Assembly (NCBI GenBank): GCA_946624575.1
Contig: CAMOSH010000010.1
Span: 1-45,178, forward strand
Direction: 5' to 3'
Origin: an uncultured Verrucomicrobiota bacterium
GTDB taxonomy: Bacteria > Verrucomicrobiota > Kiritimatiellia > RFP12 > UBA3636
Length of the DNA stretch: 45,178 bases
The notes beneath the pieces were generated by a model. It did not search any database. It was not told where the DNA came from and saw only the letters and a program-made list of their open reading frames with translations. Positions within the stretch are counted from its first letter, which is position 1; every line of letters begins with the position of its first letter. Made by a program: the position numbers and the translations under genes. Shown here piece after piece: positions 2,675-18,529 of the stretch.

Positions 2675-3844
2675 TTACTTTTCGGCGCCGCTGCGGCCAT
2701 GAAGCGTGCGCCAGGCGCGGGGCGTGAGGCCCGTGTCGCGGCGGAAGCGGCTGACCAGATACGAGGCGTGGCAAAAGCCGCACTTCGCCGCGATCTGGTC
2801 CAGCGGGAGATCTGTGTCGCGCAGAAGGTTCCGGGCCGCGACAAGGCGCTGGCGCAGGATCTCCGCGCCCGGCGTCCGCCCGAGTTCCGCCTGGAAGTGC
2901 CGCGCGAGCCTAAGCGGCGTCACGCCGAGCGCTTCGGCCATCTGCGCGACGCCCCACGGGCGGGAGAGGTTCCCGGCGAGGAGGGCGAGGGCGCGCGCGA
3001 CCAGCGGGTCGGCGGCGGCGGTGTGGTCGGTGCTGGCGCGCACCGTCACGTCGCCCGGCGGAACGAGAACCGGGCCGACCGGCGGCTTTTCGCCGTCCAT
3101 CAGCCGCGCGAGCAGGGCCGCTGCCTCGTAGCCGTGGAGCTTGCCGTTCATCGGGATGCAGGAAATCGGCACGGACTGGTTTTCGCAGACGTATTGGAAA
3201 TCGCCGCAGGAGAGGATCGCGATGTCGTCCGGGACGGCGATTCCGAGGGCGCGGCACTCGGCGAGGACGCGCGCGGCCCCGGCCATTTCGTTGCAGAAGA
3301 CGGCAGGATGGTCGATCGCGCGTACCTTTCGGTCCACTTCGTCGATGATGTCGCGTCCGATCTCCTTCCTGCGCTTCGCTTCCACGATGCAGATGGTCCG
3401 GCGCGTCTGGATCATCAGGTCGATCTGGCATCCCGGTCGGCCGCGAGGCCCCTTCGCCGCCCGTCGCAGATAGGGACCCGCGGACGTGATCGCAAGCCCT
3501 TCGAGATGGAGGTGCGGGAGAAGATGCCGATAGTTGTTGGTCACGAGGTTCTCGAACGCAAGGCCCATCACGGCGTCCCAGCCCTCCAGTTCGCGCAGGG
3601 ACGCGATGGAAAAGGCCCCGTCGTCGATGACGCCCTTGTGCGGCGCGATGCACTTGAGGCAGAAGCGCGCGTAGTTGTCGCGAAGCCGGAACCGTCTCTG
3701 GCGAAGGGCCTGTCCCGTTTCGGGATTGATTCTCCCGGCCTCGGCAAGGAATCCGGCCTCGACCAGATTCTCCAGGACGGCGGTGACTTCCCCGCCCTTT
3801 TCGATCCCCAGCGCCTCGAAACCGACCGCCTTGTCAAGAGACAA
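2675..3844 (-). CDS. In-frame fusion: DUF234 ATPase tail + XylR-like regulator
   Basis: An open frame joining parts of two unrelated families. The first about 175 residues match the C-terminal part of the ATPase at 16874-18319: both carry INPETG or VNPETG, LRDNYxRF, GWDxVMGLAFENLV and CQIDL, here followed by VEAKRRKEIG. The ATPase Walker A and B half is missing. Near residue 175 (about 3315) it switches to the second half of an AraC/XylR-type regulator: a ligand-binding part (GIAVPDDIAIL, then GYEAAALLARLMDG) and an AraC-type two-HTH domain ending LTPRAWRTLHGR. The regulator's N-terminal half is also missing. There is no ATG at a sensible place; the frame is open back into the esterase gene, and TTG at 3844 is only a candidate start. 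Probably a deletion product, expressed or not; an assembly join cannot be excluded. Confidence 0.6.
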   Translation of the reverse strand: MSLDKAVGFEALGIEKGGEVTAVLENLVEAGFLAEAGRINPETGQALRQRRFRLRDNYARFCLKCIAPHKGVIDDGAFSIASLRELEGWDAVMGLAFENLVTNNYRHLLPHLHLEGLAITSAGPYLRRAAKGPRGRPGCQIDLMIQTRRTICIVEAKRRKEIGRDIIDEVDRKVRAIDHPAVFCNEMAGAARVLAECRALGIAVPDDIAILSCGDFQYVCENQSVPISCIPMNGKLHGYEAAALLARLMDGEKPPVGPVLVPPGDVTVRASTDHTAAADPLVARALALLAGNLSRPWGVAQMAEALGVTPLRLARHFQAELGRTPGAEILRQRLVAARNLLRDTDLPLDQIAAKCGFCHASYLVSRFRRDTGLTPRAWRTLHGRSGAEK

Positions 3845-3908
3845 TCGTGCACCTATTTTGCAATCGCAAATCAGGTGTCCATTATTTGCAAATGGCGGGC
3901 GAGGGATG

Positions 3909-6659
3909 CTATTGCGCCTCGAGCTCGAACGGCCCCGACGGGAGGTTGGCCTCGTTGCGGATGCAGCCGAACCAGGGGCGCGAATGGAGGTAGCGCAGTT
4001 TGACCGGGACGTCGACGCCGGCGGCGGCGGCGACAAGGCGCGGGCCGGCGATTTTCCCGCCTATTCCGTCGAGATTGCGGATTATCGCAGGCCGCCATTT
4101 GCCGTCGGCCCCGCAGATTTCCAGCCCTGCGTCGAGCGACTTGTCGGGGTTGTAGAGGTAGAGCGCCTTCGCGTGGTCGAACTCGACGACGAATGCGTCA
4201 TCCTCGACCCGCCATTCGCGCGGCACGGGCGAATCGGACTCGACGGCAAGGCCGTAGTCGTGTTCGAGCGCGAGTAGGGCAAGGCGTTGTCCGACGGTCT
4301 CCTTGTCGGCGTAGTGGATGTCGTGGAGGTTCCCGACGTCGTTCACGGTGGCCATCGCGGCGTTCGGCTCCTCGGCGGCGAACTTCGCCTGCGCCATCTG
4401 GAGCGCGGGGACGCGGTCGTCGCCCCACGGCGCGAGCTGGACGAAGCGGATTCGCAAATCGGGGTTCTCGAATTCGCGTGCCCAGCCGTTGTAGAGGGCG
4501 CGCATCTTCGGCGCGTAGGCCGCGCCGTCGGCGACGTTGTTCTCGCCCTGGTACCAGATGAACCCGCGCATGGCGTAGGGGGCGAGCGGAGCCAGCATGT
4601 CGTTCCAAAGGACGCGGGGCTGGTCCTGCGCCCGTTTCCAGTTGCCGAAGCCCCCCTCCCCGGGAAAGTCCGGAGTCCCCTTCACTTCGACTTCCGCCAA
4701 CGCCGCCGTTTCGGGGACGGACGCGAGTCCTTCCGCTGGCGTCCACGCCTCGATGGGGGTTCCGCCCCACCAGGCGCCGACGATCCCGATCGGCACGTCG
4801 AGCGCCGAAAACAGTTCCAGCGCGAAATAGACGCCCATCGCGGAGAAGGAGGGCTTTTGGAGGTTTTCCGGCGTGAAGGGCCTCCAGTCGGACTTCCAGC
4901 GGCACTCGCGGCGCGGCTCCGCGCTGGTCTTGTAGGTGCTGTGACAGCAGAAGCGGACGAGCGGCTTGTCCGTCATCTGAGCGCGCATGGCCCCCTTGCC
5001 GTCGCGGAAGCGCGGAGAGCCGCCGACGAGCGGCAGCTCGACGTTGCTCTGTCCGGAGCAGAACCAGACCTCGCCGACCAGGACGCCGCGCGCCTCTGCG
5101 GGCGCGCCGCCGGAGGAGCCGGTCGCCGTGAGGGTCCGTCCTTCGCGGCAGGTCTCCATTGGGGCGAGATCGGCGCGCCAGCGTCCATCGGCGCCCGCGG
5201 TGGCCTCGACTGTCTGGCCCGCGAACGACACGTGGACGCGCTCGCCGGGCTTCGCCGCGCCCCACACGGGGACGCGCATCCCGCGCTGCAGCACGGCTCC
5301 GTCCGAAAACGGGCTTGCGAGAGTGACCGAGGTCGCGGCAAACGGGACGAACTCGATGCGGATGCGCGGGTCGGCGCACTCGCCGACGACGCCTTCGACG
5401 GCGTGTTCGGCATCGTGGCCGCGGACCGAGATGACGTTGCAGGCGCCTTTGGGCGCGTCGGCCGGGAGAACGATGTCGCGGAAGGTCACGCTGCGGATGT
5501 ATCCCGCCGTCTCGTCCCGTCGCCACTGGTTGCGGACGATGCCGGTCTTCACGCTGGCCAGGAGATCGTCGGCCTTCACGGAGTCGAAGCGGAAGCCCTC
5601 GAAGACGAGGTTTTCGAAGATGGTGCCGTTCGACGCTTCGACATTCACGGCGTGCTGCCATCCCCTGGGGTTGGCGACGGCCTGGTGGACGATGTCGATT
5701 CCGCTCGCGCGGATCCCGCTGAAACGGCGTTCCGGCCCGTCGCACTCGCATCCGATGCGGAAGATGTTCGCCACGTCTGCCCAGAGGGTGCAGTTCTCGA
5801 CCGACAGGTTCTCGCACCAGTATTTCGCGCAGACGCAGTCGTCCTGCGTCCGTATGAAGCAGTCGCGGATGGTCACGTCTCGCGAGCGGCAGACGTCGAT
5901 GCCGTCGTCGTTGAGGACGTGGCCGCCAAGGACGTTCAGTCCCTCGACGCGCGCGCCCTCGACCTTATTGAGGACAACCGTCCAGTGGAAACTGCCGATG
6001 ACGGTGAAGTCGCGGAGCGTAATGTCCGCGCCCTCGAAGTGGAGCATGTGGTTCGCAGGGCCGCCGTAGTGCGGCCAGCACAGGCCGGAGAGGACTCCGT
6101 GGCCACGCACCGTGATGTTCGTGCCGGTGCCGATGACGGCGGCCTCGACGAAGGCGCCGGGGGCGAGATACAGGGTTTCGCCTGAATGGAGTTCGATGGG
6201 CTTGTCGAAGTGGTGGCGCCCGGGGCCGAGCCACTTCACGGCGGGGTCGCCGGGGTCTGGCGGATCGGGGTCCGGCGGCCGCGCCGAGACGACGAGCGCC
6301 CCGTGGCGCGGGCGCGGCTCGACCGCGAGGGTGAAGGGCGGCGTCGCCTTGAACTCCAGCGCGTGCGCTCCGTCCAGGCAGGGCGCGATGTTGCGCGAGA
6401 GCGGCAGAATGCGCGTGGCGGAGAGGTCGGACTCGCTCTCCACGCGCACCGTGACCTCGCCTTCGGCGTCGAAGAGCGCGGCCCAGTAGGGCTGCGCCGC
6501 CTCGTCCGGCAGTTGCCAGTCGTGGTGCGACGGCGCGGGGATGTCCAGCACCTCCACGGGGCGGTCGTTTACCCACACCCGGTATTCCGGGGATGCGCGG
6601 CCGGGGATGGCGCAGCCAAGCACCATCGCCGCCGCCATCGAAAACGCCGCAGCACGCAT
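3909..6659 (-). CDS. Secreted GH28-like / sialate O-acetylesterase-like fusion
   Basis: A 916-residue exported protein with two catalytic-type domains. A signal peptide (MRAAAFSMAAAMVLGCAIPG) is followed by a small beta domain and then a right-handed beta-helix of the polygalacturonase (GH28) type, residues about 145-450, with NDDGIDVCRSRDV and TQDDCVCAKYW supplying the paired Asp residues of that fold. The C-terminal half is a sialate O-acetylesterase-like (SASA, CE20-like) SGNH domain: FCSGQSNVELPL near residue 535, GAWWGGTPIEAW, WYQGENN and a DIHYADK segment carrying the Asp-His pair. A likely role is removal of acetyl groups and cleavage of a pectin-like or other uronate-containing chain by one polypeptide outside the cell. 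AAGGAG lies seven bases before the start. It follows the LamG gene by 22 bases, so the two are co-transcribed. Confidence 0.85.
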   Translation of the reverse strand: MRAAAFSMAAAMVLGCAIPGRASPEYRVWVNDRPVEVLDIPAPSHHDWQLPDEAAQPYWAALFDAEGEVTVRVESESDLSATRILPLSRNIAPCLDGAHALEFKATPPFTLAVEPRPRHGALVVSARPPDPDPPDPGDPAVKWLGPGRHHFDKPIELHSGETLYLAPGAFVEAAVIGTGTNITVRGHGVLSGLCWPHYGGPANHMLHFEGADITLRDFTVIGSFHWTVVLNKVEGARVEGLNVLGGHVLNDDGIDVCRSRDVTIRDCFIRTQDDCVCAKYWCENLSVENCTLWADVANIFRIGCECDGPERRFSGIRASGIDIVHQAVANPRGWQHAVNVEASNGTIFENLVFEGFRFDSVKADDLLASVKTGIVRNQWRRDETAGYIRSVTFRDIVLPADAPKGACNVISVRGHDAEHAVEGVVGECADPRIRIEFVPFAATSVTLASPFSDGAVLQRGMRVPVWGAAKPGERVHVSFAGQTVEATAGADGRWRADLAPMETCREGRTLTATGSSGGAPAEARGVLVGEVWFCSGQSNVELPLVGGSPRFRDGKGAMRAQMTDKPLVRFCCHSTYKTSAEPRRECRWKSDWRPFTPENLQKPSFSAMGVYFALELFSALDVPIGIVGAWWGGTPIEAWTPAEGLASVPETAALAEVEVKGTPDFPGEGGFGNWKRAQDQPRVLWNDMLAPLAPYAMRGFIWYQGENNVADGAAYAPKMRALYNGWAREFENPDLRIRFVQLAPWGDDRVPALQMAQAKFAAEEPNAAMATVNDVGNLHDIHYADKETVGQRLALLALEHDYGLAVESDSPVPREWRVEDDAFVVEFDHAKALYLYNPDKSLDAGLEICGADGKWRPAIIRNLDGIGGKIAGPRLVAAAAGVDVPVKLRYLHSRPWFGCIRNEANLPSGPFELEAQ

Positions 6660-6681
6660 GGCCGTTCTCCTTGCCGTCCGC

Positions 6682-9600
6682 CTAGCGGACGATCATCACG
6701 AATGGCTTCTGGACGCGCCATTCAATCTTCACAAGCGGGGGTGTTCCGTCGGCGGTCTTGTCGTAGGTGTATGAACCGCCTGCCGTGAAACCCTGGAGTG
6801 TCCGCCACTCGCCGTTGCCGTTCGGGACGGAGAGGCGGTAGCCGAGGCCGGCGCCGCCGGCGGCCGTGAAGGTGTATTCCCCTTCGACGAAATACGCCTC
6901 GTCGGCGGTTTCCGCCGCCGTGATGCGGGAGCCGTCCTCCACGGCCACGATGACATTCGTCGTCGCCAGCGCGCCGAAGAAGCGGGCGCTGTCAACCTGC
7001 CGGTTGTGCGCCACTTCCGCGTCGCTGAGAACGCGGTCGTAGAAACGATAGCTCTTGAGCGTCCCGCTGAAAAGCTCGTCCGTCTTCGGATAATGTCCGC
7101 CGATGCTGTAGCCGTCCGCGAACGTGACGGCGGATTGGGCGGAGGGCAGCGTGGAATGTCCGTAGCGTCCGTAGGAGTCGGTGGATGCCGTCCAAGGCGC
7201 CTCGGTTCCGGCGAACACCACGCCGTCCGTCTCGTCGAGCATGGCCGTCGCGTAGGAGAAGGAGCCGGCCTGGAACGCGGGGCGATGGTCGCTGTGCACC
7301 GTGAAGCAGCACGTGTTGTCGACGCCATGTCTCCAGAAGCCGGAGGAGCGAATGCAGAGCGAGCACTTGTTCCAGTTGTTCGCGTTGTAGTCGCACAGGA
7401 GGTAGCCGATGCCGTTCTGGGCGGCGGCGGTGGCGTCGACAAGCGTCTGGATGGTGTATCGCGAGGGAACCGTGAACGAAGTCGATTCGTGGAAGACGGC
7501 ATCCTTGGCGAAGACGAAGCCGTCGTCCGTCCACGAACCCGCCGCGGCGCCGGCCGCCCACGCCGAACCGTCGAACGAGTAGCGGGTCATGTTGTATGTG
7601 CCCGGATTGGCGCAGTTCACCCACGTGGTGGCGGCGGGGTCGTGGGCCGCGTCCGGTCCCGCGTTGAGGATGCCGTCGTAGTTCACGACGAGGCCGTCCT
7701 GCACGTAGTCCCCGATGCCGTAGGCTGCGGCGGTGCGGATGCCGTGCGTGGCCCTCCACTTCCAGGTGAGGCGGACGAGCCCTTCGGCGGTCGTGTAGGC
7801 GTAGGACGCGCCATCGTGCGCGACGGGCGCGCCCCATGCGGAGCCGTCCCACGTCTCGATCGTGTAGCCGTCCGGCGCATAGGTGATGCCGTTCGCCGCC
7901 GTCACGCTTTCCGGCGCGACAAAGGTGTAGGAGCCGTCAACGTCGTATACGCCGCACTTGTCGCAGCCTTCAAGGAAGGAGAAGGACGATCGCACGACGA
8001 CGTTGGTCTCCGCGAGGCGTCCGAAGATGCGGAATTCATCGACCGTGCGGTTCTGCGCGACTTCGGCGTCGGTCAGGGCGCGATTGTAGAAGCGGAGGTT
8101 GTGGAGCGTCCCCTTGAAGCATTCCAGATCGGCCACGGCGGCCACAGACTTGCCGTGGAAGCCGCCCGCGCTGAACCAAGTCAGGTCCGTCGCGGCCGAT
8201 GCGCCGGCGATGGACGGCGCGTCGTTGCCGCCGCCCGCGGGACGCGAGGTCCCCTCGAAAATGTAGGTGTGGCCGGTGTCGTCATGGTCCACGATCGCCG
8301 TCACGTAGGACGGCTTTGTGTCGGCCGGGTAGAAGTTGGGGCGCGCGCCACCGGCGAACAACGCATTGTTGACGTAATAGACACTGTTGGCATTGCCGTG
8401 CGCCGCGTCGTAATTCGTCTTGCGCATCCCGATGCCGCCCTTGTCCCATCCCGAACCGGGCACCCAGAGATAGGCGACGTTCCCATGCTGGTCGGCGATG
8501 GCGCCCGTCACCGACACCTGCATCGTGAAGTTGGTCGGGACGGAGAAGGGGTCTCCGTCGTCCCACTTGGCGAAATACCCCTTGCCGGTGAAGGCGAAGC
8601 CGTTGTCCGTCCAGGCGCCTTCCGTAGCGTCGTTGCGGACCGACGCATAGCCGCTGCCGCTATCGACGTAGGAGCACCGGTCCATCGGCCACCGGTTCTC
8701 GTAGCCGGGGGCGATGTTCCTCCACTGCAGGGCTTCTGGGTCGTGCGCGGCGGTTGCGCCGGCGTTGCGGATGCCGTCGTAGTGCAGGAGAAGGCCGTCC
8801 TGGACGTAATCGTCGATATCATAGACGACGAGACGCCCCTCGCCTTCGGGGCGCGCGTACCGCCAGGTGAGGCGGACCTTCGCCGTCGTGTCGGAGAGTG
8901 TGCAGGACGTTTCGCCGTCATGCGCGGCGGGCGAGCCCCAGGCGGAGCCGTCCCACGTCTCCAGCGTGTAGCCGGAAAGGACGTAGCGCCGCCCCTTGAC
9001 CGTCCGGCTTGCGGGGGCGGAGAAGGTGTAGCCCTCGGCGTCGAGCGCGAAATGGCTGTCCTCGCTTCCGGGAATCGTCGTGGAGAGGACAATGTTCGTC
9101 ACGGGGATCGCGGCGCGGCGATTGAAGTAGCGCGCCTCGTCGACGACGCGGTTCCACGCCACCTCCTCGTCCGAGAGAACGCGGTCGTAGAAGCGGTAGC
9201 TCTTGAGCGTCCCGCTGAAAAGCTCGTCCGTCTTCGGATAATGTCCGCCGATGCTGTAGCCGTCCGCGAACGTGACGGCGGATTGGGCGGAGGGCAGCGT
9301 GGAATGTCCGTAGCGTCCGTAGGAGTCGGTGGATGCCGTCCAAGGCGCCTCGGTTCCGGCGAACACCACGCCGTCCGTCTCGTCGAGCATGGCCGTCGCG
9401 TAGGAGAAGGAGCCGGCCTGGAACGCGGGGCGATGGTCGCTGTGCACCGTGAAGCAGCACGTGTTGTCGACGCCATGTCTCCAGAAGCCGGAGGAGCGAA
9501 TGCAGAGCGAGCACTTGTTCCAGTTGTTCGCGTTGTAGTCGCACAGGAGGTAGCCGATGCCGTTCTGGGCGGCGGCGGTGGCGTCGACAAGCGTCTGGAT

Positions 9601-9999
9601 GGTGTATCGCGAGGGAACCGTGAACGAAGTCGATTCGTGGAAGACGGCATCCTTGGCGAAGACGAAGCCGTCGTCCGTCCACGAACCCGCCGCGGCGCCG
9701 GCCGCCCACGCCGAACCGTCGAACGAGTAGCGGGTCATGTTGTATGTGCCCGGATTGGCGCAGTTCACCCACGTGGTGGCGGCGGGGTCGTGGGCCGCGT
9801 CCGGTCCCGCGTTGAGGATGCCGTCGTAGTTCACGACGAGGCCGTCCTGCACGTAGTCCCCGATGCCGTAGGCCCTGAAGGCGGGGTCATCCCAGTACTT
9901 GATGCCGGCGAGCGACGGCGCGGCGGCCATGGCGGCGGCGACGAGCGCGGCGGTCACGCGCGGCGCGGAGGAAACAGGAAGAACGAATCGCTTGTTCAT
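6682..9999 (-). CDS. Secreted triple-LamG surface protein
   Basis: A 1105-residue exported protein with no catalytic motif. After an N-terminal signal segment (VTAALVAAAMAAAPSLAG) come three copies of a module made of a LamG/concanavalin-like domain (starting YGIGDYVQDGLVVNYDG or YDIDDYVQDGLLLHYDG and ending FYDRVLSDEEV or similar) and a small beta domain with GYTxETWDGSAWGxPxAHDG. The first and third LamG domains are identical in protein and DNA; the middle one is diverged. LamG domains usually bind glycans, so a role in adhesion to the substrate or as surface coat is likely. AAGGAG lies six bases before the start at 9999. It ends in FVMIVR, without LPxTG or PEP-CTERM. The downstream gene is the pectin-lyase-fold/esterase protein. 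Confidence 0.8.
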   Translation of the reverse strand: MNKRFVLPVSSAPRVTAALVAAAMAAAPSLAGIKYWDDPAFRAYGIGDYVQDGLVVNYDGILNAGPDAAHDPAATTWVNCANPGTYNMTRYSFDGSAWAAGAAAGSWTDDGFVFAKDAVFHESTSFTVPSRYTIQTLVDATAAAQNGIGYLLCDYNANNWNKCSLCIRSSGFWRHGVDNTCCFTVHSDHRPAFQAGSFSYATAMLDETDGVVFAGTEAPWTASTDSYGRYGHSTLPSAQSAVTFADGYSIGGHYPKTDELFSGTLKSYRFYDRVLSDEEVAWNRVVDEARYFNRRAAIPVTNIVLSTTIPGSEDSHFALDAEGYTFSAPASRTVKGRRYVLSGYTLETWDGSAWGSPAAHDGETSCTLSDTTAKVRLTWRYARPEGEGRLVVYDIDDYVQDGLLLHYDGIRNAGATAAHDPEALQWRNIAPGYENRWPMDRCSYVDSGSGYASVRNDATEGAWTDNGFAFTGKGYFAKWDDGDPFSVPTNFTMQVSVTGAIADQHGNVAYLWVPGSGWDKGGIGMRKTNYDAAHGNANSVYYVNNALFAGGARPNFYPADTKPSYVTAIVDHDDTGHTYIFEGTSRPAGGGNDAPSIAGASAATDLTWFSAGGFHGKSVAAVADLECFKGTLHNLRFYNRALTDAEVAQNRTVDEFRIFGRLAETNVVVRSSFSFLEGCDKCGVYDVDGSYTFVAPESVTAANGITYAPDGYTIETWDGSAWGAPVAHDGASYAYTTAEGLVRLTWKWRATHGIRTAAAYGIGDYVQDGLVVNYDGILNAGPDAAHDPAATTWVNCANPGTYNMTRYSFDGSAWAAGAAAGSWTDDGFVFAKDAVFHESTSFTVPSRYTIQTLVDATAAAQNGIGYLLCDYNANNWNKCSLCIRSSGFWRHGVDNTCCFTVHSDHRPAFQAGSFSYATAMLDETDGVVFAGTEAPWTASTDSYGRYGHSTLPSAQSAVTFADGYSIGGHYPKTDELFSGTLKSYRFYDRVLSDAEVAHNRQVDSARFFGALATTNVIVAVEDGSRITAAETADEAYFVEGEYTFTAAGGAGLGYRLSVPNGNGEWRTLQGFTAGGSYTYDKTADGTPPLVKIEWRVQKPFVMIVR
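7049..7725 (-). repeat. 677-bp perfect direct repeat, copy A
   Basis: By eye the 677 bases match 9197-9873 without a difference, 2148 bp apart in the same orientation. It covers the third LamG domain of the surface protein. Sequence on both sides is diverged, so this is a recent duplication or gene conversion rather than slow domain divergence. Confidence 0.9.
9197..9873 (-). repeat. 677-bp perfect direct repeat, copy B
   Basis: Second copy of the 677-bp block, coding for the first LamG domain. Recombination between the two copies would remove exactly 2148 bp, which is 716 codons, and leave an in-frame single-LamG protein. The locus could therefore vary in length. Confidence 0.9.
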
Positions 10000-10042
10000 G
10001 GAAGGCTCCTTGATGGCATGTCTTTCGGGTGTCGTTCCGGAC

Positions 10043-10063
10043 TGTCCCGCGACTCACGGGACA
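10043..10063 (-). promoter_or_regulatory. Hairpin in the LamG gene leader
   Basis: TGTCCCG, a seven-base loop and CGGGACA form a stem 44 bases upstream of the LamG start codon. It has no following U-run and lies upstream of a good ribosome binding site. A leader hairpin, an operator or a REP-like palindrome would all fit. Confidence 0.4.
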
Positions 10064-10147
10064 CTCCCACGGAACCAAACGCAAACGATTATGCCACGAC
10101 CGCAACCCGAAATCTTCAAGTTTGAGAAAAAAATGCGGAACGCAACG

Positions 10148-11368
10148 CTAGTGCCGGAATTCGGCGGACTTGTTCCGCCTGCGCCATTCGCCTGCCGACA
10201 TACCGCATCGCGACCGGAAAAGCCAGTCAAGGGCGCGGTAGCAGCCGAAGCCGCAGAAATCGGCCACCGCGCCGACGGGGATGTCCGTGCGCGCGAGCAG
10301 GTCGAAGGCCTTCTCCATGCGGACGTGCAGGATTTCGTCCAGGACGCTGTGGCCGACCGCCTCGCGGAAGCGCATGTCGAAGAGGCGGCGAGTTCCGGGG
10401 AAGCGCGCGGCGAGCGCGCGGGCCGTGAGTCCGTCGCACGCCTCGTTCCGGATGATGGACATGGCCTCTTCCATGCACGGTTCGTGCCGGCCGCGCCCGC
10501 TCGTCGAGTTGCGCCGCACGACAAGGAGCGGGCCGACGGTGGCGTGGCTGTTCTTTTCAGCCGCAGAGTACGCTGAGTCCGCAAAGCCCTTGCGATCCCT
10601 TGCGTTCTTTGCGGCCCATGCTTCCGCCAGCATTTTCGCGGCGAGGAATCCGGCGTGCTCGAAGTCGATCCGGATGCTGGACAGAGGGCGTCCGTCCGGG
10701 CCTTCGTTTGCGGCCTCGTCGTCGACTCCCACGAGCGCGATGTCCCTGGGAATGTGGAGGCAGGCCGCGCGGCAGGCGCGCAGGACGGCGGTGGCCGTGT
10801 TGTCGTTGACCGCGAAGACCCCGCACGGGCGCGGCAACGCGGAAATCCACCGGGCGAGCCTGCCTACGCGCGAACCGACGGATTCCCCGCGCCGCGACGC
10901 GAAGACATGGCATCGCGGACCCTCCGCGGCGGCGATCGCGCGAAAGGCCCTCGCCCTGGCGCTCGACCACGGCGACGGAATCTCGCGCTCGACCACGGCG
11001 ACCGAAGCCGGGCGCCATCCAGCGAGTTCGCGCATCGCGGTACGGGCGATGGCCTCGTTGTCGATGGAAACGCAGCGACGCCCCCCCGGGCGCGGATCGG
11101 GCGGGGAGTCCAGATAGACGGCCGGCATCGGCCCGAAAAGCCGGTTCGGGAGGCGATCCCTGCGCCCGCGGCATTCGATGACGCAGCCGACGGGCCGGAA
11201 TCTTCGGAAAAGCCCCGGAATCCCTCCGGGGCCCTCCTCCGGTCTGGGCGCGGACACGGCGTCCCAACCGCGCGACGCGGCATAGCGCCGGACGCCCGCG
11301 AACTTCTTCTCCTGAACGAGGCTGGCATCCGGAACGCCAAGATAGAGGATGCATGGCGAATCGCTCAT
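10148..11368 (-). CDS. AraC/XylR-like transcriptional regulator
   Basis: A 406-residue cytoplasmic regulator. Residues about 5-275 resemble a LacI/ribose-binding-protein sensor domain (CILYLGVPDA at the start, FAVNDNTATAVLRACR, HIPRDIALVGVDDE, then SSIRIDFEHAGFLAAKMLAE). The last about 100 residues are an AraC-type double HTH (MRFREAVGHSVLDEILHVRM, then IPVGAVADFCGFG and a terminal MSAGEWRRRNKS). This architecture is typical of XylR-type activators that sense a sugar. AGGAGG lies seven bases before the start. An interdomain linker is encoded by a dispersed CTTTGCG-type repeat (10559-10617). The adjacent LamG/esterase operon, 150 bp downstream on the same strand, is a plausible target. Confidence 0.85.
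   Translation of the reverse strand: MSDSPCILYLGVPDASLVQEKKFAGVRRYAASRGWDAVSAPRPEEGPGGIPGLFRRFRPVGCVIECRGRRDRLPNRLFGPMPAVYLDSPPDPRPGGRRCVSIDNEAIARTAMRELAGWRPASVAVVEREIPSPWSSARARAFRAIAAAEGPRCHVFASRRGESVGSRVGRLARWISALPRPCGVFAVNDNTATAVLRACRAACLHIPRDIALVGVDDEAANEGPDGRPLSSIRIDFEHAGFLAAKMLAEAWAAKNARDRKGFADSAYSAAEKNSHATVGPLLVVRRNSTSGRGRHEPCMEEAMSIIRNEACDGLTARALAARFPGTRRLFDMRFREAVGHSVLDEILHVRMEKAFDLLARTDIPVGAVADFCGFGCYRALDWLFRSRCGMSAGEWRRRNKSAEFRH
10559..10617. repeat. CTTTGCG-family repeat inside the regulator linker
   Basis: The plus strand here carries CTTGCGATCCCTTGCGTTCT followed by TTGCGGCC, the same A-free motif family that encodes signal peptides near 25228, 26763, 35367, 41455 and 42661. 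Read on the minus strand it adds about 20 polar residues (AAKNARDRKGFADSAYSAAE) between the sensor and DNA-binding domains of the regulator. Confidence 0.7.
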
Positions 11369-11413
11369 GCGCCATCCTCCTCGTTGGCACTGATCGTCAA
11401 GACCAGACTTGCA

Positions 11414-11458
11414 TTTCTCTCGGTGAACATGGCGGCCATACTAACATTTTTCTCTCGG
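11414..11458 (-). promoter_or_regulatory. Direct repeats and -10-like box before the regulator
   Basis: On the minus strand CCGAGAGAAA occurs twice, at 11458-11449 and 11423-11414, 35 bp apart, flanking a -10-like TAGTAT. Two equal sites placed around a promoter suggest autoregulation by the XylR-like protein, which binds direct repeats in known family members. The -35 box is weak. Confidence 0.4.
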
Positions 11459-11567
11459 AAAGAAAAGGAGATTTCGACATTTTTTTTCGGATGTGGCATT
11501 CATGCTAAAGAATGCCGTGGCGAGCGGCCGGTCTCCCAGTCATGCCGCCGCAAAGGAGGAGGAAGAA

Positions 11568-11870
11568 TCATGCGTGGAGGGCGAGACGGCGGTGCCAGCG
11601 GTCAATGTCCTCGGGCGCGTAGAGCAGCAGCCCGTCCTCGTCGCCGCGAAGACGGCTCCGGCAGTCGGCGGCGATCTCCTCCGCCGTGCGCGCCTTCGTC
11701 CAGACGTCGAGCGCGACGTCGGACGAGGAGACCGGGAAGCGGTCGCCGCTCGCCACCGTCGCCTGGAAGAGCGACAGCTTGTGCTGGCGCAGGCCGAGTT
11801 CCGTTTGTGTTTCGCCGGGCCCGGCTGGCGCCGGCTTCGCCCACCCGATCAGGGTGAAGCACCGCCGATT
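11568..11870 (-). pseudogene. C-terminal fragment of a LamG-type protein
   Basis: About 100 codons are open on the minus strand below an in-frame TAG near 11871. The end resembles the last strands of a LamG/concanavalin domain: HKLSLFQATVASGDRFPVSS, then VALDVWTKARTAEEIAADCR, the family's common closing motif. There is no start codon with a ribosome binding site and no upstream part of the domain. I read it as the stump of a deleted gene. It lies just before a truncated GH5 gene, so this spot has lost material on both sides. Confidence 0.55.
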
Positions 11871-12009
11871 CTATGCCATGGCGGGCGGGAATGGAATGCC
11901 GGAACGGGCGAAAAACATATCCTTTCCGACAACCCGGCCCTTCGGACGCCCGCCGAGGAGCCGGCGGCGGCATGGCCGATTCGTCGGACGGTTTCTGGCC
12001 GGATCGTCG

Positions 12010-12038
12010 TTGCCTGCGGAAGAAATGGCGGGTAATAT
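12010..12038 (+). promoter_or_regulatory. Promoter almost abutting the GH5 start
   Basis: TTGCCT, a 17-bp spacer and TAATAT end nine bases before the ATG at 12048. The expected transcription start is within two or three bases of the start codon, so the message would be leaderless or nearly so. Confidence 0.55.
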
Positions 12039-12047
12039 GAAGCCCGT

Positions 12048-12869
12048 ATGAGAGATTCCGTCACATTTTCCGTTTTCGCCGATCTCCACTTCGCGCCCGG
12101 CGGACGCGAAAGCGGCTCCGAGACGCGGATGTTTCACGACGCGGAATGCGCCGCGCGCTTCCTCGACGTCTGGCGCCGCATCGCCGCGCGCTTCTGCGGC
12201 AACGCCGACGTCATCTATGGCTACGACCTCGTCAACGAGCCGGTGCAGCGCAGGGAGGCGCTTCCAGGCTGCGACGGTTGGACGCTCCAGCGCCGCGCCG
12301 CAGAGGCGATCCGCGAAATCGACCCGGAGACGCCGGTCATCGTCGAATCCAACCTGCTCGACCATCCGGAAACCTACGGGTCGATGTCGCCGCTCGACCT
12401 CGCGAACGTCATCTACGAAGTCCACGTTTACAACCCGGTGGACTTCACGCACCAGGGCGTCGGCGGCCCCTACGAGCCGAAATCCTACCCGGACGTCCGG
12501 CGCGGCTGGGACAAGGACTTCCTGCGCCGCGTCCTCGCGCCGGTCCGTGCCTTCGAGAAAATGCACGGCGCGAAAATCTACGTCGGGGAGTTCAGCGCCA
12601 TCGCCTGGGCGGACGGTGCGGACAAGTGGCTCGCGGACGCGATTTCCCTTTTTGATGAATACGGCTGGGACTGGACGTACCACGCCTTCCGGGAGTGGAG
12701 CGGATGGAGCGTCGAGCACGAAGGGCCTGACGCGAAGCACATGGTCCCATCCTCGGACAATCCCCGCAGACGCGCCCTGCTCGACGGCCTGAAGGGCGGC
12801 GCGGACAGTGAGTCCTCCTTCCCGACCGCCGTGGAAAAGGCGGGGCGAGCCGTCCCGGCGAGCCGGTAG
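12048..12869 (+). CDS. 5'-truncated GH5-type glycosidase
   Basis: A 273-residue protein matching the C-terminal two thirds of a glycoside hydrolase family 5 (cellulase/mannanase-like) barrel. The acid/base is Glu64 in YDLVNEPVQ and the nucleophile Glu181 in IYVGEFSAIAW; VHVYNP and ADLHFAPGGRESGSE are also family landmarks. GH5 domains normally have about 100 residues before the DLH-x-PGG motif; here there are only 12, and no signal peptide. The first 14 residues (MRDSVTFSVFADLH) look like the start of a calcineurin-like metallophosphoesterase. A recombination through the shared DLHF segment would explain this, which is an inference. The barrel lacks its first strands, so activity is doubtful. 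The C-terminal tail, after LLDGLKGG, is low-complexity. Confidence 0.7.
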   Translation: MRDSVTFSVFADLHFAPGGRESGSETRMFHDAECAARFLDVWRRIAARFCGNADVIYGYDLVNEPVQRREALPGCDGWTLQRRAAEAIREIDPETPVIVESNLLDHPETYGSMSPLDLANVIYEVHVYNPVDFTHQGVGGPYEPKSYPDVRRGWDKDFLRRVLAPVRAFEKMHGAKIYVGEFSAIAWADGADKWLADAISLFDEYGWDWTYHAFREWSGWSVEHEGPDAKHMVPSSDNPRRRALLDGLKGGADSESSFPTAVEKAGRAVPASR

Positions 12870-13031: not shown

Positions 13032-13118
13032 ACTTTTCAACCTTTCAACTTTTCAACCTTTCAACTTGGCGTTAGCCCAACCTTTCAACTTGGCGTTAGC
13101 CCAACTTTTCAATTGGCA
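13032..13118 (+). repeat. TTTCAAC repeats with a 24-bp tandem duplication
   Basis: A run of CAACCTTTCAACTTTTCAAC-type units is followed by two adjacent copies of AACCTTTCAACTTGGCGTTA (24-bp period including GCCC). The same CTTTCAAC motif occurs inside the GH5-like gene near 27300-27345, so this is a dispersed family and not a purely local microsatellite. Confidence 0.8.
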
Positions 13119-13122
13119 ATGC

Positions 13123-13151
13123 TTGGCGTTTGCCGCGCATTGTGGTATGAT
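13123..13151 (+). promoter_or_regulatory. Promoter overlapping the ATPase start region
   Basis: TTGGCG (13123-13128), a 17-bp spacer and TATGAT (13146-13151) form a strong promoter. The -10 box contains an in-frame ATG at 13147, so that ATG cannot lie on this transcript. Transcription would begin near 13158, next to the ATG at 13159. Confidence 0.6.
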
Positions 13152-13158
13152 TTCCGCC

Positions 13159-14784
13159 ATGCAAGACACGGAACAGACACTGCCTAAAATCAATGACGTA
13201 AGCGACGACTTTGCGGAACTTCGCAAAAACGATGCGATTTACGTCGACAAGACGGCGTTTGTCCACAAGCTTGTCTCCGACAGGAATTCGAACATCGTGT
13301 TCGTCTCGCGTCCGCGGCGCTTCGGCAAGTCGCTCACGGTCTCGCTACTGAAAAATCTCTTCAATGGCCGGCGGGAGCTGTTCAAGGGGCTCGCCATCGA
13401 GCGGACGGACTGGAAGTGGCTCAAGCACCCCGTGATCTATTTCCGGTTCAATGAACTTACCACGGTTAGCGTCGAGGAGTTTGCGGCCGACTTCGAGTCA
13501 TACGTGAACAAGCAGCTGCGATACGCGGGGTTCGATTGCGATGACACCCAGTCATGCTGGCAGAATTTCGGCCAAGCCATCGAAACGCTCGCCGAGAAGT
13601 CGAGCCGGGATGCAAGGGAGCGTCCTGACGAGTTCGGCGAGGGCGTGGTGATTCTGATCGACGAATACGACGCGCCGGTCGGTCACGCGCTTGCGGATGT
13701 CGAAAAGGCCGAAAAGATCCGCGACAGGATGTCGTCGCTCTACGCGCAGATGAAGTCGCGCACCGGCGACATCCGCTTCCTCTTCATGACCGGCGTCTCC
13801 AAGTTCACCAAGCTTTCCGTCTTCTCCGCCCTGAGCAACATCAAGGACGTGTCGATGCTCGACCCCTACGCCACGATGTTCGGCTACACGGAGGAGGAGC
13901 TCGGTGAATACTTCGAGCCGCACATGCGCGTCCACGCCGCGAAGATGGGGCTTTCCTACGAGGACTACCGCGCGGAGATGAAGCGCTGGTACAACGGCTT
14001 TCGCTTCTCGCCGGAGAGCGAAACAACGGTTTACAACCCGATATCCGTTGCATACACGCTGAAAGACCAGAAAAGGCACTTCTCTGCCACGTGGGCGACG
14101 ACGGGACGGCCCTCGATGCTGATGAACTTTCTCAAGCGCGAGGATGTCCTCCAAGTCAACCCGGAAGCCGTTGAAGATGTAGATGCGTCCGAGTTCGATG
14201 TCGCGGAGTTGAACAACCTTTCCGCAATCGCGCTTCTGTTCCAGTCCGGCTATCTGACGATCAGGGACTACGAACCGCTTACGGAAAGCTACACGCTCGG
14301 CGTGCCGGACGAAGAAGTCCGTCGCGACCTGTGCACGCTCATGGCGGGGGTCGCCGCCCGGCAGAGCAACGCCTGGGCGGCCTCGCTTGGCAAGAAGCTC
14401 CTCAATGCGAAATGGCCGCAATTTTTCGAGGGCCTGAAATCCCTCTACGCGGCGATGGCCTACGGATCGACGGAAGGAAGCGTCCATGAGAACTCATACG
14501 GGCGATGCCTGTCGTTTCTGCTGGCCGGCTGCGGATTCCGCTTTCGGATGGAGGACGTGCAGGCAAGCGGCCGCGCCGACATCGTGGCCGACCATCCGGC
14601 CCTGACCTGCATCTTCGAGCTCAAGGTCGGCGAGCCGGTCGATGAGGCGTTCGCCCAGCTCCGCGAAAAGGGCTACGCCGATCCGTATCGCGCCTCGGGC
14701 AAGCCAATCTGGCTCATCGGCCTCTCCTTTGACCGCGAGACGCGCAAGCTCGTCGATTGCGCTGCGAAGCCGTATGAGGCGTAG
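13159..14784 (+). CDS. AAA-ATPase-like protein with PD-(D/E)XK domain
   Basis: A 541-residue cytoplasmic protein of the widespread AAA-ATPase_like/PDDEXK_9 family, common in gut anaerobes. It begins with the family's usual LPKINDVSDDFAELRKND and YVDKTAF. Walker A is VSRPRRFGKSLTVSLL, Walker B is VVILIDEYDAPVG, and the C-terminal nuclease-like fold has RADIVADHPALTCIFELKVG. The role of the family is unknown; defence or mobile-element functions have been proposed. Start choice: ATG 13147 is inside the predicted -10 box, so I prefer 13159, which gives a leaderless message. Nothing links it functionally to the neighbouring sugar genes; such genes are often mobile. Confidence 0.85.
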   Translation: MQDTEQTLPKINDVSDDFAELRKNDAIYVDKTAFVHKLVSDRNSNIVFVSRPRRFGKSLTVSLLKNLFNGRRELFKGLAIERTDWKWLKHPVIYFRFNELTTVSVEEFAADFESYVNKQLRYAGFDCDDTQSCWQNFGQAIETLAEKSSRDARERPDEFGEGVVILIDEYDAPVGHALADVEKAEKIRDRMSSLYAQMKSRTGDIRFLFMTGVSKFTKLSVFSALSNIKDVSMLDPYATMFGYTEEELGEYFEPHMRVHAAKMGLSYEDYRAEMKRWYNGFRFSPESETTVYNPISVAYTLKDQKRHFSATWATTGRPSMLMNFLKREDVLQVNPEAVEDVDASEFDVAELNNLSAIALLFQSGYLTIRDYEPLTESYTLGVPDEEVRRDLCTLMAGVAARQSNAWAASLGKKLLNAKWPQFFEGLKSLYAAMAYGSTEGSVHENSYGRCLSFLLAGCGFRFRMEDVQASGRADIVADHPALTCIFELKVGEPVDEAFAQLREKGYADPYRASGKPIWLIGLSFDRETRKLVDCAAKPYEA

Positions 14785-15650: not shown

Positions 15651-16856
15651 TCATCCGCCGCCGCGCTCCGCGCGGCGCCACTCGCCGGGCGTCTGGCCGG
15701 TGCGGCGGCGGAAGACGAGCGAAAGGTACTGCCGCGAGGCGAAGCCGCACGTTTCGGCGATGGCGGCGAGGGGGAGCGCGGTCGTTTCGAGAAGGTGGCG
15801 CACCCGCTCCAGGCGCTTTTCCTCGACGTGTTCGCGGATCGTCCTGCCGGTCGGGAGGAAGAGCCGGGCCGCCTGCCGGACGTTCGTCCCCATGGCGGCG
15901 GCGATGTCGCGGACCCCGAGGAACGGGTCGTCGAAGTGCGACGCGATGAAGTCCAGCCCCGCCGCCATGCGCGGGTCCGTTCCCGGATCGTCGCGCCGTG
16001 TGCTGCCGCGCCGCGCCACGCCAAGCGGGCCGTACAAAACCGTGGGAATCCGCGTTTTGCCCTTCCGGGGCTGGCCGTTGCGGCGGGCCGGCCTCCCCCG
16101 GTCCATGAGCTTGGCAAGCAGTTCCGCGGCCATGCGCCCCGCGCCCTCGAAATCGACGCGGATGCTGGAAAGCGTCGGCCGCGTGGAAAGGCAGAGCGTT
16201 TCATCGTCGTCGGCGCCCAGGATGGCGACATCCCCCGGAACGTCTAACCCCGCGTCGCGGCATGCGTCAAGCGTGAACTTGGCCAGGAAGTCGTTTCCCG
16301 CGAAGGCCGCAATCGGTCGCGGCAGTAACGAGAGCCACTTCGCCAGCGCGTCGCGCTCCTTGGTCCAGCCCCATTCCGTCTGCGGTTCGTAGAGAAAAGC
16401 ATTTCTTCCCGCTGCCCGTATCTTCGCTAGGAAAAGTTCCCCGCGCTTTGCGGTCCAGCGCTGCGCCTTCGGCATTGGGACGAACACGTAGCTGCGCCGG
16501 CCAAGCGAGAGCAGTTCTTGGACGGCGAGGTCCGTTTCGGCACCGGCGTCGCACCGGACGCGGCCGTTGGCGCGCGGGTGGATGCCGTCAAGCTGCACGA
16601 CGGGAGTTTCAGGCGGCAGCAGCGCGGCGGCGTTTTCGAGATGCAGGTTTTCGCGCACGATCACGCCGTCGGCGCGGGCGAAAAGCGGCGCGAAGGGGGC
16701 CATGTCCGGCCCCGTCTGCGCCGGATCGACCGTCTCCAGCGTCCAGCCCGCCCGCGCGGCGGCGCTTTCGACGCCTCGCAGTTCCGCGCTGCTCACGCGG
16801 ATGCCCGTCGAAAGCACGGCCACGACAAGCGGCTTCTTTTCCGCAGGTTTGTCCAT
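15651..16856 (-). CDS. AraC/XylR-like transcriptional regulator
   Basis: A 401-residue regulator with a sensor half like a LacI/periplasmic binding domain (KPLVVAVLSTGIRVSSAELR at the start; IAAFAGNDFLAKFTLDACRD; LDVPGDVAILGADDD; LSSIRVDFEGAGRMAAELLA) and a C-terminal AraC double HTH (VRDIAAAMGTNVRQAARLF; LAAIAETCGFASRQYLSLVF; TGQTPGEWRRAE). It is the best model for the intact form of the regulator half present in the fusion at 2675-3844. It starts 17 bases after the ATPase at 16874 on the same strand, so both are probably on one transcript. No clear ribosome binding site was found. The convergent glycyl-radical activase or the operon at 21903 could be a target; not shown. Confidence 0.85.
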   Translation of the reverse strand: MDKPAEKKPLVVAVLSTGIRVSSAELRGVESAAARAGWTLETVDPAQTGPDMAPFAPLFARADGVIVRENLHLENAAALLPPETPVVQLDGIHPRANGRVRCDAGAETDLAVQELLSLGRRSYVFVPMPKAQRWTAKRGELFLAKIRAAGRNAFLYEPQTEWGWTKERDALAKWLSLLPRPIAAFAGNDFLAKFTLDACRDAGLDVPGDVAILGADDDETLCLSTRPTLSSIRVDFEGAGRMAAELLAKLMDRGRPARRNGQPRKGKTRIPTVLYGPLGVARRGSTRRDDPGTDPRMAAGLDFIASHFDDPFLGVRDIAAAMGTNVRQAARLFLPTGRTIREHVEEKRLERVRHLLETTALPLAAIAETCGFASRQYLSLVFRRRTGQTPGEWRRAERGGG

Positions 16857-16873
16857 TGTTTCGCGGCAGTGCC

Positions 16874-18319
16874 CTACAATCCAAGCAGTTTCGATGCGGG
16901 GACGACGGCGTCGAAGTAGCCGTCCCCCTCCACGACGGGGTCGAGCTCCCCGTCGAAGACCAGAACGGGGCGGACGCTTACGCCCCTGCGAAGCGGAATG
17001 CGCGAGAGCCGCTGTTCCATCTCATCCTCGATTTCCGGGCCGATCCGGGTCTTTCGCTTCACCTCGACCGCGTATGCGGTGCGCGGGGTCTGAACGAGGA
17101 GGTCGATCTGGCATCCCCGGTCCGATCCGTCGCGCCCGTGCCGCGCATGGCGGAAGGGCGCGGCGGAAAGTATGGTCGCGTTTCCGATCCCAAGGAAGGG
17201 TACGAGTTCCATCGCGTTGTTGACGACCAGGTTCTCAAAGGCAAGCCCCATGACGGAATCCCAGCCCGGAAGCGAGGAAAGTCGCGTGAAGCGGAATGCG
17301 CCGCGTTCGATGGCCCTTTTGTTCGGCTCCACATATTTGAGGAAGAAGCGCGTGTAGTTGTCGCGAAGGCGGTATCGGAGGATGCGCGATTCGACGCCTG
17401 TTTCGGGATTGACTCCCTGGTCGTCGGACAGGAAACCTCCTTCGGCGAGTTCTTTCAGCGTAGCCGCGAGGTGCCCGTTTCTCGGCTCTCCAAGGCTCGC
17501 CGCGATTTCGGTTCCTGAAAGCGGGCCGCCCGCGAGCGCGGCGAGAATCTTCCGCTTGAATTCGGACTTGGGGCCGTAAAGCGGGTTGAAGATGGCATCG
17601 AAGTCCTGAAACAGCGTCCCGCCCTTCGTAAAGCAGAGGCGGCGGATGTTTTCGTCGGCGGACAGCCCCGGATCGATTTCCTCCAGATAGCGTGGGACGC
17701 CGCCGGTGACGGACAGGACGTCCAGCATTTCCCTGGCCGCGATTCGCCCCGCAGCCGCGCCCCAAAACGCCGCGCAGTCCGCAAGTGGCAATTCGGAAAG
17801 GACATAGTCGCGCGAGAACCGGCCGGTGAAGCCCGTGTTGCCAAGAATGTTGCGCTTAATCCACGCGGAGACGGAGCCGCACACCACGACGACAAGTTTT
17901 TCGTGCCGGTGGAAGAAGGTCTCCCACGCGGTGCGCAGCGTCCCCGGGAAGTTTCGGTCGTCGCCGCCCATCCAGGATATTTCGTCGAGGAGGACGACCG
18001 TTCGCCTGGAGTCGTCAATGGCTTTGTCCAGCCAGAAAAAGGCGTCATACCAGTTGGGAAGCGAAAGTATCGGTGAATTCGTCTGGCGCGCAAGCGCGGC
18101 CGCGAACGCCCCTAGTTGCTCGGAATTCGGCACCGGGCGCCCGTCGCGTGGCGGCAGCCCCTCGAATTCCAGATAGGCGTCGGCCGTCCGCTTCGCGAAT
18201 TCGCGGAAGAGCGTAGATTTTCCGATGCGGCGCCGACCGCGACAGGCGACAAGCGACGATGTCCGCTTGCGCCAAAGAGCTTCAAGGTCTTCCAGTTGTT
18301 CCTTGCGGCCGAAAAACAT
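16874..18319 (-). CDS. ATPase with DUF234-type C-terminus
   Basis: A 481-residue cytoplasmic protein of the archaeal-type AAA (ATPase_2) plus DUF234 family. Walker A is CRGRRRIGKSTLFREF near residue 27-42; Walker B is TVVLLDEISWMGG; a sensor-like VVVCGSVSAWI follows. The C-terminal half has a winged-helix-like section and a PD-(D/E)XK-like part with GCQIDLLVQTPRTAYAVEVK. The start at 18319 is fixed by AAGGAG eight bases upstream, although the frame is open further upstream. Function is unknown for the family. A truncated relative forms the first half of the fusion gene at 2675-3844. It shares a predicted operon with the regulator at 15651. Confidence 0.85.
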   Translation of the reverse strand: MFFGRKEQLEDLEALWRKRTSSLVACRGRRRIGKSTLFREFAKRTADAYLEFEGLPPRDGRPVPNSEQLGAFAAALARQTNSPILSLPNWYDAFFWLDKAIDDSRRTVVLLDEISWMGGDDRNFPGTLRTAWETFFHRHEKLVVVVCGSVSAWIKRNILGNTGFTGRFSRDYVLSELPLADCAAFWGAAAGRIAAREMLDVLSVTGGVPRYLEEIDPGLSADENIRRLCFTKGGTLFQDFDAIFNPLYGPKSEFKRKILAALAGGPLSGTEIAASLGEPRNGHLAATLKELAEGGFLSDDQGVNPETGVESRILRYRLRDNYTRFFLKYVEPNKRAIERGAFRFTRLSSLPGWDSVMGLAFENLVVNNAMELVPFLGIGNATILSAAPFRHARHGRDGSDRGCQIDLLVQTPRTAYAVEVKRKTRIGPEIEDEMEQRLSRIPLRRGVSVRPVLVFDGELDPVVEGDGYFDAVVPASKLLGL

Positions 18320-18349
18320 TCGTGGTCTCCTTCCCGTGCGACGCAGATC

Positions 18350-18378
18350 ATCATCCCATAATTCGCACGAATTGTCAA
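18350..18378 (-). promoter_or_regulatory. Promoter of the DUF234 ATPase
   Basis: On the minus strand, TTGACA (18378-18373), a 17-bp spacer and GATGAT (18355-18350) precede the ribosome binding site. The start would be near 18343, with a leader of about 24 bases. Confidence 0.65.
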
Positions 18379-18386
18379 GAAAATAC

Positions 18387-18472
18387 GGCGCAAAATTCGA
18401 AAATTCAATTTTTGCGCCCGGGAACCGGAATGATTTCGGGCGCAAAATATGCAAAATGCAATTTTTGCGCCC
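18387..18472. promoter_or_regulatory. Twin palindromes upstream of the ATPase promoter
   Basis: Two similar palindromes lie at 18387-18418 (GGCGCAAAA ... TTTTGCGCC) and 18438-18472 (GGGCGCAAAA ... TTTTGCGCCC). Their arms are perfect and the interior is A/T-rich. The centres are about 52.5 bp apart, five helical turns, and the nearer centre is about 60 bp before the predicted start. This is the geometry of two dimeric sites on one DNA face, as for class-I activators. Neither is followed by a U-run, so they are unlikely to be terminators. Confidence 0.6.
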
Positions 18473-18529
18473 ACACTCCGATGGCACTCATGCCTGAATG
18501 TCAAACCAATATTGCATTTTGAGACCCTC

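What the first reader, a model, noticed from the sequence alone, without database searches (positions are those of the whole stretch)
2675..3844. In-frame fusion of a DUF234 ATPase tail to the second half of a XylR-like regulator
Both parents have intact relatives in this window (16874-18319 and 15651-16856), so the two halves are clearly recognisable. The ATPase lacks its Walker half, and the regulator lacks half its sensor, yet the frame is open across the joint near 3315. No standard start codon is present. It may be a dead deletion product, an expressed fusion with nuclease-like and DNA-binding parts, or an assembly error.
Basis: partly seen in the sequence, partly recalled or inferred. 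Interest (0 to 1): 0.68.

Follow-up and report, generated by a model that had tools for sequence, protein, structure and literature searches.

The report
Remnants of two broken neighbouring genes
A gut bacterium's DNA holds a stretch where deletions have fused the tail of a predicted phage-defence ATPase gene to the back half of a sugar-response regulator; it reads as one open frame but is almost certainly a dead leftover, because its promoter, start and half of each protein domain are gone.

Summary
The in-frame fusion is real: one open minus-strand frame joins an ATPase fragment (3814-3305) to the C-terminal half of a XylR-like regulator (3304-2675). It is best read as a deletion remnant, not a working chimera. 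Intact relatives of the ATPase (PADLOC family PDC-S27) carry inverted repeats just upstream of their promoter. The fusion keeps one such repeat (3877-3850) and the -35-like TTGACA (3837-3832). The -10, ribosome site, start codon and first ~277 codons are then missing. A second deletion removed the ATPase's last ~38 codons and the regulator's first ~170. The joint occurs in no other genome searched. In two sister species the same regulator survives only as 69-84 codons beside a truncated GH5 gene, and in one the ATPase survives as a 238-bp scrap. The open frame means little: a random join is in frame one time in three, and 53% of joins stay open for 600 nt or more in this 64% GC DNA. Assembly error is less likely (no repeat at the joint) but not excluded. 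Side result: PDC-S27 genes in this lineage nearly all carry gene-specific inverted repeats, often paired about 55 bp apart, that covary with the protein's winged-helix residues, suggesting self-regulation.

The parts
2675..4060 (-). open frame (461 codons, stop to stop) that carries the fusion; first possible start TTG 4036, next TTG 3844
3305..3814 (-). PDC-S27-type ATPase fragment, about codons 278-447 of 485: second half of the winged helix, linker and most of the PD-(D/E)XK-like domain (motif ID...EAK kept); Walker half and last ~38 codons lost
2675..3304 (-). XylR-like regulator, C-terminal half: C part of Peripla_BP_3 sensor plus complete AraC-type HTH; first ~170 codons lost
3850..3877 (-). 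remnant operator: inverted repeat CACCTGATTTGC-GATT-GCAAAATAGGTG, 12 nt upstream of the -35 as in the intact G009 gene
3832..3837 (-). -35-like TTGACA of the lost ATPase promoter; no -10 follows at the right distance
3814..3831 (-). interval holding the breakpoint of deletion 1 (promoter to about ATPase codon 278)
3304..3305 (-). joint of deletion 2 (ATPase to regulator), at most a few bp of microhomology
16874..18319 (-). intact relative of the ATPase (481 aa), two inverted repeats upstream; followed 17 bp downstream by a XylR gene
15651..16856 (-). intact relative of the regulator (401 aa, Peripla_BP_3 + HTH_18)
12069..12869 (+). 5'-truncated GH5 gene; in G001 and G006 the regulator's C-terminal scrap is joined directly to it

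Best explanation
The ORF is a composite pseudogene. A PDC-S27-type ATPase gene once stood here with its operator and promoter, with a XylR-like regulator downstream on the same strand. Deletion 1 removed everything from just after the -35 box to about ATPase codon 278. Deletion 2 removed the ATPase's last ~38 codons and the regulator's first ~170 and joined the stumps. The frame stayed open because one join in three is in frame and stops are rare in 64% GC DNA. Shown: homology boundaries, the kept operator and -35, the missing -10 and start, absence of the joint elsewhere, scraps of the same genes in sister species. Inferred: the order of the two deletions, that the two genes were direct neighbours, and lack of expression.
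For: The DNA just upstream of the ATPase fragment matches the operator/promoter region of the intact ATPase of G009 (79% over 39 bp), with the same 12-nt spacing between inverted repeat and TTGAC; coding homology resumes only at about codon 278. Both protein folds are cut at the joint: the nuclease core lacks its last strands and the sensor lacks its first half. No promoter-like site on the minus strand upstream of the ORF. No match spans the joint in 58 related genomes by protein, or by DNA in the 18 other family genomes. In G001 and G006 the orthologous regulator is only an 84- or 69-codon scrap joined to a truncated GH5 gene, with differing joints; in G001 a closely related ATPase survives as a 238-bp internal scrap. 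A second PDC-S27 gene in the same genome (C48) also has an internal deletion. Random joins: 33% in frame, 53% open for 600 nt or more. In G001 the same regulator scrap lies in a 589-codon open frame read through antisense GH5 DNA.
Against: No stop codon or frameshift is present in either half, and pairwise dN/dS values (0.18 and 0.36 on 84 and 64 codons; 0.09-0.18 for the ATPase part) show no clear relaxation; they would also fit a recent break. A TTG start with an SD-like AGGTG exists at 3844 (the AGGTG is the repeat's right arm), and internal ATG/GTG starts exist. No reads or RNA data were available. The tight ATPase-XylR pair at 15651-18319 shows the arrangement is possible, but the closest paralogues of this regulator are not beside an ATPase.
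Confidence: 0.85

Rival explanations
1. Expressed chimeric protein: a truncated nuclease-like domain fused to half a sensor and an AraC-type HTH, started at TTG 3844 or an internal ATG/GTG, acting as an altered regulator.
For: Open frame through the joint; intact HTH_18; PD-(D/E)XK motif residues kept; TTG with SD-like AGGTG; no stop codons in either half.
Against: Promoter lacks a -10 and no other minus-strand promoter-like site is seen; both flanking domains are incomplete at the joint; not conserved in any relative; orthologous regulator also decayed in two sister species; open frames are cheap here.
Confidence: 0.06
2. Assembly artefact: two separate loci or strains joined at 3304/3305 in the metagenome assembly.
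For: The source is a 288-contig draft genome whose named relatives are metagenome assemblies; the joint is seen in one assembly only.
Against: The 81 bp round the joint match nothing else in the genome over more than about 25 bp (longest exact match 17 bp), so there is no repeat for a false graph join; the region's history of truncations is independently visible in the G001 and G006 assemblies.
Confidence: 0.07
3. Variant of the remnant reading: the joint is the edge of a rearranged or inserted ~8.8-kb segment (3305-12068) rather than a simple deletion between two neighbours; the ATPase fragment came with the insert.
For: In G001 and G006 the regulator scrap is joined straight to GH5 at 12079-12102, within 10-33 bp of the point where GH5 homology ends in the window (12069).
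Against: G001 and G006 have different joints, and the second can arise from the first by a further small deletion, which fits serial deletions; no intact donor segment was found.
Confidence: 0.15

Closest known systems
PDC-S27 (PADLOC candidate anti-phage system: ATPase fused to PD-(D/E)XK domain; PMC12988326)
   Same: The intact ATPase relative at 16874-18319 matches PDLC04984 with E 1.9e-72; the fusion's ATPase part matches profile 274-413 with E 9e-14.
   Different: The fusion lacks the Walker half, half the winged helix and the end of the nuclease domain.
XylR-type AraC regulators (Peripla_BP_3 sensor + AraC HTH)
   Same: C half of the sensor and the whole HTH are present; 65-69% aa identity to intact regulators in G000, G001 and G006.
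   Different: N half of the sensor lost and replaced by ATPase sequence.
Deletion-derived bacterial pseudogenes / remnant gene fusions
   Same: Two truncated genes joined with little or no homology; private to one genome; scraps of the same genes in sister species.
   Different: Frame happens to be open across the joint.
Archaeal Walker-type ATPase PABY2304 (PDB 2qen) and STAND/NLR ATPases
   Same: Nearest folds to the predicted structure of the intact ATPase.
   Different: Only the intact relative, not the fusion, has this ATPase fold.

Membership tests
PDC-S27 ATPase | match to PADLOC PDC-S27 profile over the whole protein | tested here: not met
   fusion matches only profile 274-413 of 474; the intact relative at 16874 matches 4-413
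PDC-S27 ATPase | Walker A/B ATPase core | tested here: not met
   homology begins at about codon 278
PDC-S27 ATPase | PD-(D/E)XK-like C-terminal domain | tested here: inconclusive
   motif CQID...VEAKR kept, but the last ~38 residues, which hold the final strands in the model of the intact relative, are lost
DUF234 (Pfam) | match to the Pfam DUF234 model | tested here: not met
   no DUF234 hit for the fragment or the intact relative up to E 10
XylR-like AraC regulator | AraC-type double HTH | tested here: met
   HTH_18 1-78/80, E 2.5e-20
XylR-like AraC regulator | complete periplasmic-binding-protein-like sensor | tested here: not met
   Peripla_BP_3 profile 65-167/167 only
functional fusion gene | conservation of the joint in other species | tested here: not met
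   no spanning match
functional fusion gene | promoter and start | tested here: inconclusive
   -35 kept, -10 and native start lost; only TTG or internal starts
functional fusion gene | expression | not testable with these tools
   no RNA or protein data

The most novel reading that the evidence does not exclude
The fusion is expressed from a weak or rebuilt promoter under the kept operator and acts as a new DNA-binding protein in which an AraC-type HTH has lost part of its sugar sensor and gained part of a defence-type nuclease domain.
Probability: 0.04. Interest if true: 0.55.

Novelty: new member of a known kind. Interest (0 to 1): 0.2.

Why it matters
As a gene fusion it would matter only if expressed, which is unlikely. 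Its value is as a fossil: the promoter scrap it keeps led to a family-wide pattern, in which almost every PDC-S27 gene in these Kiritimatiellae-type genomes carries its own inverted repeat(s) next to the promoter. That pattern makes the regulation of a poorly understood candidate defence family directly testable. It also shows that open frames across joints are weak evidence for function in GC-rich genomes rich in paralogues.

Tried and rejected
(1) General ATPase-XylR linkage as the origin: 67 fetched loci plus the intact pair in the window show a XylR close by in only a few loci, mostly in genomes with very many XylR copies; one tight pair (17-21 bp apart) is conserved in G000, G006 and G023. 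(2) The ATPase as a transposable element with internal-deletion derivatives: no conserved downstream end was found. (3) dN/dS as a test of life or death: too few sites and saturated. (4) Literature on DUF234, COG1672 or inverted repeats upstream of such ATPases: nothing relevant; the passages read in the PDC-S27 papers do not mention such repeats.

Full report
WHAT IS THERE. The minus strand carries one open frame from 4060 to the TAA at 2677-2675. Codons 70-252 align with the C-terminal part of a multi-copy ATPase, and codons 253-461 with the C half of XylR-like regulators. By DNA comparison, ATPase homology ends at about 3306-3314 and regulator homology starts at 3304, so the joint is at 3304/3305. 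The regulator half holds the C part of Peripla_BP_3 (65-167 of 167) and a complete AraC-type HTH. The window's intact relatives are at 16874-18319 and 15651-16856, 17 bp apart, in the order ATPase then regulator, the same order as in the fusion. The ATPase is not a Pfam DUF234 hit; it is a strong match to PADLOC PDC-S27 (E 1.9e-72), described as an ATPase fused to a PD-(D/E)XK domain (PMC12988326). Its predicted structure (mean pLDDT 91.6) is closest to the archaeal ATPase 2qen, followed by STAND/NLR proteins.

THE UPSTREAM END. TTG codons are present at 4036 and 3844, but comparison shows what this DNA was. The 39 bp upstream of the fragment match the region just upstream of the intact G009 ATPase gene (79%), and part of it also matches the region upstream of an ATPase in G001. 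Listing the upstream regions of the intact copies showed inverted repeats followed by a TTGAC -35 box and a -10 box. The fusion keeps one inverted repeat (CACCTGATTTGC-GATT-GCAAAATAGGTG, 3877-3850) and, 12 nt later, TTGACA (3837-3832), the same spacing as in G009. After that, coding homology resumes only at about codon 278 of the ATPase, near 3814. The -10, ribosome site, start codon, Walker core and first half of the winged helix are therefore deleted. TTG 3844 lies between the old operator and the old -35, and its SD-like AGGTG is the repeat's right arm. No promoter-like site was found on the minus strand upstream of the ORF.

THE JOINT. The ATPase lacks its last ~38 codons, which hold the last strands of the nuclease-like domain in the model of the intact relative, and the regulator lacks its first ~170 codons. 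Both domains next to the joint are broken. The 81 bp round the joint have only short chance-level matches elsewhere in the genome (longest exact match 17 bp), which makes a graph-type assembly error unlikely but not impossible. No other genome has the joint: none of 58 relatives by protein and none of the 18 other family genomes by DNA, where every match stops at or starts from the joint.

HISTORY IN SISTER SPECIES. In G001 the adjacent EamA gene is 98% identical, but only 84 codons of the regulator remain, joined directly to a GH5 gene that is 5'-truncated in all three genomes; in G006 about 69 codons remain, with a different joint. In G001 a close relative of the ATPase survives elsewhere as a 238-bp internal scrap (87% identical) between unrelated sequences. 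Another PDC-S27 gene in the window's own genome (C48) keeps both upstream repeats, the promoter and 22 codons, then jumps in frame to the nuclease-like domain. Truncation of these genes therefore recurs in this lineage.

HOW MUCH IS THE OPEN FRAME WORTH. Random joins of an intact ATPase and an intact regulator are in frame in 33% of cases, and 53% stay open for 600 nt or more past the joint, whatever the frame. A 517-codon antisense frame covers the same region, and in G001 the regulator scrap lies in a 589-codon open frame through antisense GH5 DNA. Pairwise dN/dS is low, but the number of changes is small and mostly reflects time before the break.

VERDICT. A composite deletion remnant of two genes; probability 0.85. 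Whether the second event was a plain deletion or the edge of a larger rearrangement (3305-12068) is open. The organism is a Kiritimatiellae-type genome of the ruminant gut, judged from the named relatives.

SIDE RESULT. In 64 loci with ATPase genes, 97% have at least one and 73% at least two inverted repeats (9-nt arms, at most one mismatch) in the 220 bp upstream, against 33% and 4% in dinucleotide shuffles and 27-42% and 2% in control stretches. A second set of 79 loci from named genomes, which partly overlaps the first, gives 97% and 58% against 29-41% and 3-4%. In a subset of 44 genes, 35 had a pair by the search used, which itself favoured similar arms: the two copies share 7.7 of 8 arm bases within a gene but only 2.5 of 8 between genes, and lie 55.6 +/- 2.9 bp apart. 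Arm similarity follows the identity of the recognition helix (Spearman 0.34) more than that of the ATPase core (0.24) or nuclease domain (0.09); genes with an NGH turn mostly have GGG/GGC-type arms and genes with GGR/GGK mostly have other arms. Paralogues are not independent, so these figures are only indicative. The simplest reading is that each PDC-S27 protein binds its own operator pair, about five helical turns apart. The repeat left beside the fusion matches none of the intact copies found in this genome, so it looks orphaned.

Noticed in passing
upstream of 16874-18319 (18319-18480, minus) and loci L061-L064, L071, L073, L091-L230: Nearly every PDC-S27 ATPase gene is preceded, next to its -35 box, by one or two ~35-bp inverted repeats; the two copies of a gene match (7.7/8 arm bases), lie about 55 bp apart, and differ between paralogues (2.5/8); arm sequence covaries with recognition-helix residues, suggesting each protein regulates itself. 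Not found described in the papers searched.
   Followed up: partly
L065 3329-3685 (-), G000 contig C48: A 118-codon mini version of the ATPase: both upstream repeats, promoter, ATG and 22 codons, then an in-frame internal deletion straight to the PD-(D/E)XK domain, which runs to the normal stop.
   Followed up: partly
whole genome G000: 119 matches to the fusion, most of them XylR-like AraC regulators, in a 3.9-Mb genome; sister genomes G001, G006, G023 and G032 give similarly large candidate counts, while most other genera have few.
   Followed up: no
L072 9002-9042 and 7728-7768 (G001 contig C15): In G001 the last 41 bp of the regulator occur twice, flanking the EamA gene, which suggests the EamA gene moved in by recombination between regulator ends; in G006 the EamA gene is on another contig.
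   Followed up: partly
window 15651-18319; L104; L121: An ATPase-XylR pair with a 17-21 bp gap is conserved in G000, G006 and G023 (a different family of the order), a possible operon linking a candidate defence ATPase and a sugar regulator.
   Followed up: no
window 12069-12869 (+): GH5 cellulase gene lacking its N-terminal ~100 profile positions; probably a remnant, truncated at nearly the same point in G001 and G006.
   Followed up: partly
window 13066-14784 (+): A different AAA-ATPase_like (PF09820) plus PDDEXK_9 gene lies close to the PDC-S27 gene.
   Followed up: no
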